From Aurantiacibacter sp. D1-12 (lineage in GTDB: Bacteria; Pseudomonadota; Alphaproteobacteria; Sphingomonadales; Sphingomonadaceae), in the NCBI RefSeq assembly GCF_028858515.1, contig NZ_JAPJZJ010000003.1, positions 247,001 through 311,000 on the forward strand: a stretch of 64,000 bases of DNA, read 5' to 3'. A program made the translations under genes and the position numbers. Positions within the stretch are counted from its first letter, which is position 1; every line of letters starts with the position of its first letter. The notes below the pieces were generated by a model. It was not told the origin of the DNA, made no database searches, and was given only the letters and a program-made list of their open reading frames with translations. Shown here one piece after another: positions 20,591-22,599 of this stretch.

Positions 20591-21133
20591 CTATTCTGTG
20601 CGCGGTACGCAGGCTGAGCGCGTTTCCCAAGTGACGTGGAACCAGTCATGCGCGATGCCATCTGACAGGTCTCGGAACACAAAAGCGAATTCTTGGCCTT
20701 GCACGCTTTGAAAAGCGCCCTCGCGCAGCAAGGTGAAATCACAGATAGCGCTAGTTTGATCGTCACCGGTAAACCGGCAGCTGGCGCTGTCAACGGCGAG
20801 CTCTGGCGTTACGAAGTCAGCAAATTCGTCGTCATACGGATGGTCGGGGTCGTACACGACCTCACCTTCTTCAAAGGCGCACGCGCGAGCAATTGCTGCG
20901 GGCGTTATCTGTTCGCAAGCACGCACGCGGTCACCGCTACTGGCGCGACGGTAACGACCGTTCTCATCAGTCTGATGAATTGCGGACAAACCACATTGTG
21001 GTGCCCTGGGCACCACTTCGCCGTCCACGATCTGGACGGGTGAGATCAAGAGCGGAATGTTATCCGAGTGCTCGGCAGCACAGCCTGCCAGAGAAGCAAG
21101 GAGGAGGAGCGGCGGCAGCGTTTTCGCTTTCAT
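20591..21133 (-). CDS. Small lipoprotein of unknown function
   Basis: 180 residues with a signal peptide ending in a lipobox (LASLAGC, Cys18). The mature part has several cysteines (PQCGLSA, VRACEQI, RACAFEE, ASCRFTG, AICDFTL, SACVPR), an even count suggestive of disulfides in the envelope. No family recognised. It follows infC on the same strand after 24 bases and so may be read through from infC. Confidence 0.6.
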   Translation of the reverse strand: MKAKTLPPLLLLASLAGCAAEHSDNIPLLISPVQIVDGEVVPRAPQCGLSAIHQTDENGRYRRASSGDRVRACEQITPAAIARACAFEEGEVVYDPDHPYDDEFADFVTPELAVDSASCRFTGDDQTSAICDFTLLREGAFQSVQGQEFAFVFRDLSDGIAHDWFHVTWETRSACVPRTE

Positions 21134-21157: not shown

Positions 21158-21700
21158 TTACTTCGGTGCGAGCACCATCAGCATCTGGCGGCCTTCGAGG
21201 CGAGGGAAGGCTTCGACCTTGGCGATTTCCGCCACGTCGTCCTGCACGCGCTTGAGCAGATCCATGCCCAGGTGCTGGTGTGCCATTTCACGTCCGCGAA
21301 AGCGCAGGGTGACCTTCACCTTATCGCCATTGTCGATGAACTTGTTCACGTTGCGCATCTTCACATCGTAATCGTGCGTGTCGATGTTCGGGCGCATCTT
21401 CACTTCCTTGATGTCCTGCGTCTTCTGCGTCTTGCGCGCGGCGTTCGCCTTCTTCTGCGCTTCGTAGCGGTACTTGCCGACATCGAGGAATTTGCACACC
21501 GGCGGGTTCGCATTGGGCGAAACCTCGACGAGATTCAGGCCCTTGTCTGCGGCCTGCTCGATCGCCTCTTCGGTGTACATAACGCCGAGATTCTCGCCTT
21601 CGTCATCGATGACGCGGACCTTCTCGGACTGGATAAACTGGTCATATTTCGGGCCGGATTTGACCGGCGGTGCCATATTGCGGCGGGGTGGACGTGGTAT
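21158..21700 (-). CDS. infC: Translation initiation factor IF-3, apparent AUA start
   Basis: Binds the 30S subunit, prevents premature 50S joining and proofreads start codons. Both domains are present: the N-terminal domain (SEKVRVIDDEGENLGVMYTEEA), the KANAARKTQKTQD helical linker and the C-terminal domain (IKEVKMRPNIDTHDYDVK ... VTLRFRGREMAHQHLG). An ATG at 21676 gives 172 residues but has no ribosome site. The only Shine-Dalgarno, CAGGAG, lies 7 bases before an in-frame ATA at 21698-21700, which would add eight residues (M-PRPPRRN) similar to the basic N-terminal extension of other alphaproteobacterial IF-3. IF-3 genes often use rare start codons for autoregulation. The usual rpmI-rplT partners do not follow; a lipoprotein gene does. 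Confidence 0.9.
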   Translation of the reverse strand: MPRPPRRNMAPPVKSGPKYDQFIQSEKVRVIDDEGENLGVMYTEEAIEQAADKGLNLVEVSPNANPPVCKFLDVGKYRYEAQKKANAARKTQKTQDIKEVKMRPNIDTHDYDVKMRNVNKFIDNGDKVKVTLRFRGREMAHQHLGMDLLKRVQDDVAEIAKVEAFPRLEGRQMLMVLAPK

Positions 21701-21707
21701 GTTGCTG

Positions 21708-21712
21708 CTCCT
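21708..21712 (-). promoter_or_regulatory. Ribosome-binding site deciding the infC start
   Basis: AGGAG on the minus strand, 7 bases before ATA 21698-21700 and 31 bases before the first ATG (21676). Spacing fits the ATA only. Confidence 0.7.
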
Positions 21713-21767
21713 GTAGCGATTTGATTCTGGGGTCTATGTAAGGACTAACGCCCGCAAACGCTAGTAA

Positions 21768-22484
21768 TTACGCTGCTTCACGCCACAAGGGGAAACGAGC
21801 GAGCTTTTTGCCCGCCGGAACCAGTGCATCGACCGCGCTGGCGGGCTGCAGCGCTTTGAGGATAGCCGGATCGGCCGCGTTCATCCCACCGGTGAGTGCT
21901 CCGAAGGCGGGAAGGATCATGCGTCCGGCACCGTCTTTGCGCGACGAAACCACGGCGCAGGCGCGGCGAATGCGGCGTTTGCGGATCTCGACTTGAACCT
22001 TCGGGTGGAAGTGCCCGGAAAGCTCGGGCCGCGTCTCTCCCGGTTTGGCGATATGGCGGAGGACCGTTCCGCCGACCTCCAGTTCCTCGACCACGGTGCC
22101 GCCGCTCTTTGTTTCCATCGCCGGATCGTGGTTGCCGGTGATCCACACCCAGTCGACGGCTCGGGTGAGGGCGCTCAGCATCCCCGCTGCATGCTCCTCC
22201 AGCCGCTGCGATCCGTCTGAATCGTGGAAATTGTCGCCCAGCGTGTAAAGCCGCCGCGCGCCGGTAATGCGGATAGCATCGGCCACCCGCTCCAGCGTTT
22301 CGCGGCTGTCATAAGGCGGCAGCATCTGCCCGTGGCGGGCATAGAAGCTCGCTTTCTCGAGGTGCAGGTCTGCCACCAGCAGCGCATTCTCGCGCGGCCA
22401 GAACATTGCCCGCGCACCGCCCTGCTGCGGCACGAGCACGAACTCGTCATCGCAAAACGGGAAGGCGAACGAAACGGGAACCAT
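21768..22484 (-). CDS. PdeM-like metallophosphoesterase (ligase-associated DNA damage response endonuclease family)
   Basis: 238 residues from ATG 22484. Calcineurin-like phosphoesterase with all motif blocks: LLVADLHLEKASFYA, YTLGDNFHDSDG, VWITGNHDPAM and LSGHFHPKVQ. The arrangement and the FWPRENALLVADLHLEK start match the PdeM family, which in many bacteria is encoded with an ATP-dependent DNA ligase and Lhr helicase; neither is present nearby. A longer frame back to 22565 exists but begins with residues unlike the family. Divergent from hemF. Confidence 0.8.
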   Translation of the reverse strand: MVPVSFAFPFCDDEFVLVPQQGGARAMFWPRENALLVADLHLEKASFYARHGQMLPPYDSRETLERVADAIRITGARRLYTLGDNFHDSDGSQRLEEHAAGMLSALTRAVDWVWITGNHDPAMETKSGGTVVEELEVGGTVLRHIAKPGETRPELSGHFHPKVQVEIRKRRIRRACAVVSSRKDGAGRMILPAFGALTGGMNAADPAILKALQPASAVDALVPAGKKLARFPLWREAA

Positions 22485-22599
22485 AAGTGTCACTTGCCGC
22501 CTGCCCACGCGTTTGGCAAGTGTGGCCGCAAGGATTTTGATCTCGTGCATAGCGGGATTGGGCACGAGCGGTCATCGCGCGCGCCGAAGGAGTATTTTC

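What the first reader, a model, noticed from the sequence alone, without database searches (positions are those of the whole stretch)
21674..21713. infC appears to start at an AUA codon
The first ATG of infC (21676) has no ribosome site. The only Shine-Dalgarno (AGGAG at 21708-21712, minus strand) lies 7 bases before an in-frame ATA at 21698-21700. Starting there adds M-PRPPRRN, similar to the basic N-terminal extension of other alphaproteobacterial IF-3. Established knowledge: E. coli infC starts at AUU and is autoregulated because IF-3 rejects non-canonical start codons; rare starts are common in infC. AUA would be a further variation and annotation software would miss it.
Basis: partly seen in the sequence, partly recalled or inferred. 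Interest (0 to 1): 0.7.

Follow-up and report, generated by a model that had tools for sequence, protein, structure and literature searches.

The report
Initiation factor gene starts at AUA
The gene for the ribosome's start-codon proofreader (IF3) in this bacterium almost certainly begins at the rare codon AUA; this is a lineage-typical version of a well-known self-limiting trick, and most of the genomes we sampled from its class show the same rare-start habit.

Summary
Comparison supports AUA as the real start. ATA is at this site in 78 of 79 close relatives with upstream sequence (ATC in the other), while ATG holds the downstream codon in only 51 of 80 including the window. Among 138 infC genes sampled across Alphaproteobacteria, a rule letting seven start codons compete called ATA 78, ATC 24, ATT 8, ATG 7, TTG 4, GTG 3, unclear 14. 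The same rule on 30 rpmI loci gave ATG 25, unclear 5. The kind of feature is known: infC uses AUU in E. coli, AUC in Streptomyces and AUA in Staphylococcus aureus, and some alphaproteobacterial records are already annotated at ATA. New at most is how general AUA is in the class. The likely function, IF3 autorepression through a codon it discriminates against, is inferred by analogy and not shown. Verdict: real, well supported, a new member of a known kind.

The parts
21158..21700 (-). infC (translation initiation factor IF-3), 180 codons from ATA plus stop
   Evidence: TIGR00168 E 3.6e-69, Pfam IF3_N and IF3_C over their cut-offs; the only infC match in the window's own genome
21698..21700 (-). 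ATA, inferred start codon
   Evidence: ATA in 78 of 79 close relatives, ATC in the other; AUH called in 110 of 138 class members
21708..21712 (-). AGGAG Shine-Dalgarno, 7 nt before ATA
   Evidence: sequence; GGAG 6-8 nt before the start in 80 of 80 family members, window included
21677..21697 (-). seven codons PRPPRRN of the N-terminal extension between the inferred start and the downstream ATG
   Evidence: first six codons after the start are kept in 80 family members with changes mostly at third positions (residue 2 varies A/S/P/V); the seventh is variable
21674..21676 (-). first in-frame ATG, judged internal and not the start
   Evidence: no SD; ATG at this codon in only 51 of 80 family members
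21734..21736 (-). in-frame TAG that closes the frame upstream of ATA

Best explanation
infC is translated from AUA at 21700-21698, directed by AGGAG 7 nt upstream. The first residue is formyl-Met and the mature protein probably begins PRPPRRNMAPPVK. Because the third base of AUA does not pair properly with the initiator anticodon, IF3 itself should disfavour initiation there, so IF3 holds down its own synthesis in a homeostatic loop like that of E. coli AUU infC. Shown by comparison: the start site (about 0.93 on its own). Inferred by analogy: initiation with Met, Met removal and the autorepression loop (about 0.75 given the start).
For: Anatomy. Conservation: 79 of 80 family members have ATA, and 80 of 80 have GGAG 6-8 nt upstream; residue 2 is Ala 45, Ser 21, Pro 13, Val 1; bases -24 to -14 are highly variable (1.36-1.99 bits) while codons after the start vary mostly at third positions. 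Class: ATA 78, ATC 24, ATT 8, NUG 14, unclear 14 of 138, against ATG 25, unclear 5, AUH 0 of 30 for rpmI under the same rule (the 30 best of 56 matches). ATA is the commonest start even where third-position GC is 0.8 or more: 26 of 39, with ATC 10, ATT 1, NUG 0, unclear 2. Records annotated by others at ATA: Falsirhodobacter algicola, Azospirillum brasilense, Azospirillum sp. B510, A. argentinense. Precedents seen as passages: E. coli ATT and Streptomyces ATC with autoregulation (PMC5472188), S. aureus AUA (PMC13009471), Xanthomonas ATT by peptides (PMC5559785), Listeria ATT (PMC13068326).
Against: No protein or ribosome-profiling evidence from this organism or from any alphaproteobacterium was found here. 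Third bases next to the start are also well kept (T at +9 in 76 of 80, A at +12 in 68 of 80), so ATA is not uniquely frozen within the close family. 14 of 80 family members have an ATG, GTG or TTG in frame further upstream before a stop, not tested for an SD. 14 of 138 class members are called NUG and 14 are unclear. In the minimum-energy fold the SD lies partly in a 3-pair hairpin (unpaired in the centroid). Autoregulation is by analogy only.
Confidence: 0.7

Rival explanations
1. Translation starts at the ATG at 21676, and the upstream stretch is untranslated leader; ATA is a coincidence.
For: It is the first canonical start codon after the upstream in-frame stop here, and ATG is present at this codon in 51 of 80 family members.
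Against: No SD before it; 29 of 80 family members have no ATG at that codon; the first in-frame ATG is at codon 22 or later in 15 of the 78 in which one was found within 60 codons, and 2 of 80 had none; the stretch between ATA and ATG varies like coding sequence.
Confidence: 0.03
2. Two forms are made: a long IF3 from AUA and a short one from AUG 24 bases downstream.
For: The first in-frame ATG is at codon 8 or 9 in 63 of 80 family members.
Against: No SD of its own in the window; not constant in position or presence in the family; many extensions in the class listing hold no Met at all.
Confidence: 0.05
3. AUA is the start but serves only as a fixed brake on IF3 output, without feedback.
For: Non-canonical starts (AUA or AUU, of genes other than infC) gave about 10% of AUG in S. 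aureus reporters in poor medium, with up to 30% for one gene in rich medium (PMC13009471 passages), so a plain brake is enough to explain weak expression.
Against: In E. coli, changing AUU to AUG abolishes infC autocontrol (title of Butler 1987 in the reference list shown), and IF3 represses a non-canonical start in Streptomyces (PMC5472188, passages), so feedback follows unless this IF3 has lost discrimination; it is a normal IF3 by profile.
Confidence: 0.2

Closest known systems
E. coli infC with AUU start and IF3 autoregulation
   Same: IF3 gene, AUH start behind a normal SD
   Different: AUA instead of AUU; here the upstream neighbour is a PdeM-like phosphoesterase gene and rpmI lies on another contig; feedback not tested
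Staphylococcus aureus infC with AUA start (PMC13009471, passages seen)
   Same: same codon, same gene
   Different: different phylum; shown there by retapamulin-enriched ribosome density, here by comparison only
Streptomyces infC with ATC start (PMC5472188, passages seen)
   Same: AUH start, said there to be misannotated in most Streptomyces species
   Different: codon AUC
Alphaproteobacterial infC records already annotated at ATA (F. algicola NZ_CP047290, A. brasilense NZ_CP033323, Azospirillum sp. B510 NC_013860, A. argentinense NZ_CP007796)
   Same: same gene, same codon, homologous site
   Different: annotation only, other families of the class

Membership tests
infC genes with a non-canonical AUH start | encodes IF3 | tested here: met
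   TIGR00168 and both Pfam IF3 domains over cut-off
infC genes with a non-canonical AUH start | AUA, AUU or AUC behind a well-spaced SD, conserved in relatives | tested here: met
   79 of 80 ATA and 1 ATC; GGAG 6-8 nt upstream in 80 of 80
infC genes with a non-canonical AUH start | protein N-terminus or initiating ribosomes at that codon | not testable with these tools
   no proteomic or profiling data at hand
IF3 autoregulated infC (E. coli type) | IF3 represses its own translation in a start-codon-dependent way | not testable with these tools
   needs reporters and varied IF3 dose
IF3 autoregulated infC (E. coli type) | IF3 protein of normal domain make-up | tested here: met
   IF3_N and IF3_C domains; residues 14-172 of 172 align to a solved IF3 chain, 8jsg, E 1.3e-54

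The most novel reading that the evidence does not exclude
AUA, not AUU, is the typical and perhaps ancestral infC start of Alphaproteobacteria, kept against both back-mutation to AUG and the GC pressure that would favour AUC, so that the IF3 feedback loop of a whole class runs on a different codon, possibly with a different set-point. A minority of lineages, half of them with AT-rich infC in our sample, appear to have left it for AUG, GUG or UUG.
Probability: 0.55. Interest if true: 0.45.

Novelty: new member of a known kind. Interest (0 to 1): 0.33.

Why it matters
IF3 polices start codons, so a class-wide AUA start on its own gene is a natural test of how that feedback is tuned by codon identity. 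It also flags an annotation error: 5 of 10 annotated alphaproteobacterial infC records opened here begin at an internal ATG (4 of those 5 seen to carry ATA 23 codons upstream), which would truncate the protein.

Tried and rejected
Start at ATG 21676: rejected (no SD, not conserved).

An RNA element around the start: no Rfam family there (the one Rfam match in the window is a tRNA). The initiation region folds no better than shuffles (z -0.31); ATA is unpaired in the predicted fold, the SD partly in a 3-pair hairpin in the minimum-energy fold and unpaired in the centroid.

Lineage signal of the start codon on an IF3 tree: a quick 139-row tree with 125 labelled rows gave 39 changes of state against a shuffled mean of 43.4 (2 of 200 shuffles as low); AUH against NUG 11 against 13.4 (7 of 200); ATA against ATC/ATT 26 against 27.9 (46 of 200). 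IF3 is short and the sample is about one genome a family, so this neither dates the AUA start nor shows it to be ancestral.

A blind version that let any codon follow the strongest SD was noisy because neighbouring codons share one SD: ATA 47, ATC 12, ATT 5 of 128 in the class, and outside the class ATT 10, ATC 4, ATA 4 of 54. It is not used as a main test.

A first pass of the start rule (ATA 77, ATC 26, ATT 12, GTG 4, TTG 4, ATG 4, weak 10, none 1 of 138) was replaced by one that scores SD register, because it allowed spacings that were too loose.

A first pass of the rpmI control searched one strand and found 19 of 30; it was redone on both strands.

A sigma-70 promoter scan upstream (21600-21900) found none.

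Prior literature: Babic 1997 on Rhodobacter sphaeroides pifC (IF3) is not held. It is seen only as a citation and in reference lists and may already describe an alphaproteobacterial infC start. Gvozdjak and Samanta 2020 (arXiv) on genes preferring non-AUG starts is seen only as a reference. Searches. None of their listings or the passages I saw stated that AUA is the class-wide infC start in Alphaproteobacteria; that is not proof that none exists. Papers were seen as listings and found passages only; none was read whole.

Full report
What is there. On the minus strand, infC reads AGGAG (21712-21708), seven bases, ATA (21700-21698), seven codons (PRPPRRN), then ATG (21676). The frame is closed by TAG at 21736-21734, eleven codons above ATA, and those eleven codons hold no ATG, GTG, TTG or CTG. 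There is no Shine-Dalgarno in the 20 bases before the ATG. The protein is IF3 by TIGR00168 and both Pfam IF3 domains and is the only infC match in the genome.

Close relatives. 79 have upstream sequence. ATA stands at the homologous codon in 78 and ATC in one (L065). With the window added (80): GGAG lies 6-8 nt before the codon in 80; residue 2 is Ala 45, Ser 21, Pro 13, Val 1, small residues after which Met is usually removed (that rule is recalled); the codon of the window's ATG is ATG in 51, TTG in 12 and something else in 17; in the rest of these genes only 7 of 607 Ile codons are ATA. The script looked only at in-frame codons and found the start in frame, 8 or 9 codons before the aligned match, in 80 of 80. 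Bases -24 to -14 are highly variable (1.36-1.99 bits). Against this: neighbouring third bases are also well kept (+9 T 76 of 80, +12 A 68 of 80), and 14 of 80 have an ATG, GTG or TTG in frame further upstream, not tested for an SD.

The class. A draw of 143 alphaproteobacterial genomes, about one a family, gave 140 with infC; 138 were read (loci; the window's own genome and G018, at a contig edge, were left out). A mechanical rule that lets ATG, GTG, TTG, CTG, ATA, ATT and ATC compete by the strength and register of the Shine-Dalgarno called ATA 78, ATC 24, ATT 8, ATG 7, TTG 4, GTG 3, unclear 14. The same rule on rpmI, in the 30 best of 56 matches from the class, gave ATG 25, unclear 5 and no AUH. 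Of 110 AUH-called genes, 95 have a small residue (A, V, P, S, T, G) at position 2 and 15 do not. ATA is not explained by base composition: in the 39 genes with third-position GC of 0.8 or more, ATA is called in 26, ATC 10, ATT 1, NUG 0, unclear 2, and internal Ile codons in the class sample are ATC 604, ATT 410, ATA 133. Of the 14 NUG calls, 7 have third-position GC below 0.35.

Outside the class. Of 89 non-alphaproteobacterial genomes in a phylum draw, 62 were read (loci): ATC 25, ATT 17, ATA 14, GTG 1, unclear 5. So AUH starts on infC are general in the phylum sample, and AUA is not confined to Alphaproteobacteria; the class differs in how often the codon is AUA. Two loci (L220, L225) show TTGGAGGAATAAGGT ATT, the same leader as in model mRNAs of PMC8266586 (passage), which I recall as the E. 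coli infC leader: a positive control for the reading.

Annotation. Twelve records were opened: 10 annotated alphaproteobacterial infC genes, one without annotation (L321, which shows ATA behind AGAAGGAAGCAAACC) and one phage gene. Of the 10, 4 are annotated at ATA (L318, L319, L324, L327), 1 at ATT (S. meliloti, L316) and 5 at an internal ATG (L317, L322, L323, L325, L326). ATA is seen 23 codons upstream in L322, L323, L325 and L326; for L317 the stretch was not printed that far, but its protein accession is the same as that of L323. Eight of the 10 are Azospirillum and three pairs share a protein accession (7 distinct: 3 at ATA, 1 at ATT, 3 at ATG), so this is a small and lopsided sample. The feature is partly in public annotation already.

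How it works. The start site rests on comparison. The function is by analogy. In E. coli infC starts at ATT and IF3 limits its own translation; Streptomyces uses ATC (PMC5472188, passages). S. aureus uses AUA, with retapamulin-enriched ribosomes at it, and its authors suggest the same autoregulation (PMC13009471, passages). Xanthomonas ATT is supported by peptides (PMC5559785, passages). Listeria infC is fixed at ATT, and reporters there, on another gene, rank ATG above ATA above ATT (PMC13068326, passages). In an in vitro study IF3 favoured Watson-Crick and G/U pairs at the third base of the start codon over weaker ones (PMC10158994, abstract start and passages). AUA against the initiator anticodon CAU is a weak third-base pair, so IF3 should repress it; that exact pair was not in the passages I saw. 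I put about 0.75 on a working feedback loop in this organism, given that AUA is the start, and about 0.93 on the start itself.

Novelty. A rare AUH start on infC is long known, and AUA itself is known in S. aureus and in some annotations. What I did not find in the searches listed is a statement that AUA is the usual infC start across Alphaproteobacteria. The tree test was too weak to say whether it is ancestral. I therefore file it as a new member of a known kind with modest interest.

Noticed in passing
window 21734-21740 (minus strand): A TACATAG motif about 33 nt upstream of ATA (its last three bases are the in-frame stop) is fairly well kept in close relatives (exact TACATA within 110 nt upstream in 35 of 80); possibly a promoter element. 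No sigma-70 consensus match was found there.
   Followed up: partly
window 21158-22565; G000 contigs C6 and C9: infC is not beside rpmI here: rpmI is on another contig (C9) and the upstream neighbour on the same strand is a PdeM-like phosphoesterase gene (TIGR04123), whereas S. meliloti keeps infC-rpmI-rplT together.
   Followed up: partly
L320 571-1092 (Sinorhizobium phage Phosso): A jumbo phage carries its own IF3 gene, annotated with a GTG start behind AAAGGAG. If right, the phage copy would escape the host-style AUH brake.
   Followed up: no
window 20591-21133 (minus strand): The 180-aa ORF just downstream of infC has a lipoprotein-like start (recalled pattern) and no NCBIfam or Pfam match.
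   Followed up: no
L089, L124, L205, L210: In some class members two adjacent AUH codons share one Shine-Dalgarno, so the exact start is ambiguous (these four, plus L102, L128 and L164 with other near-tied calls: 7 of 138).
   Followed up: no
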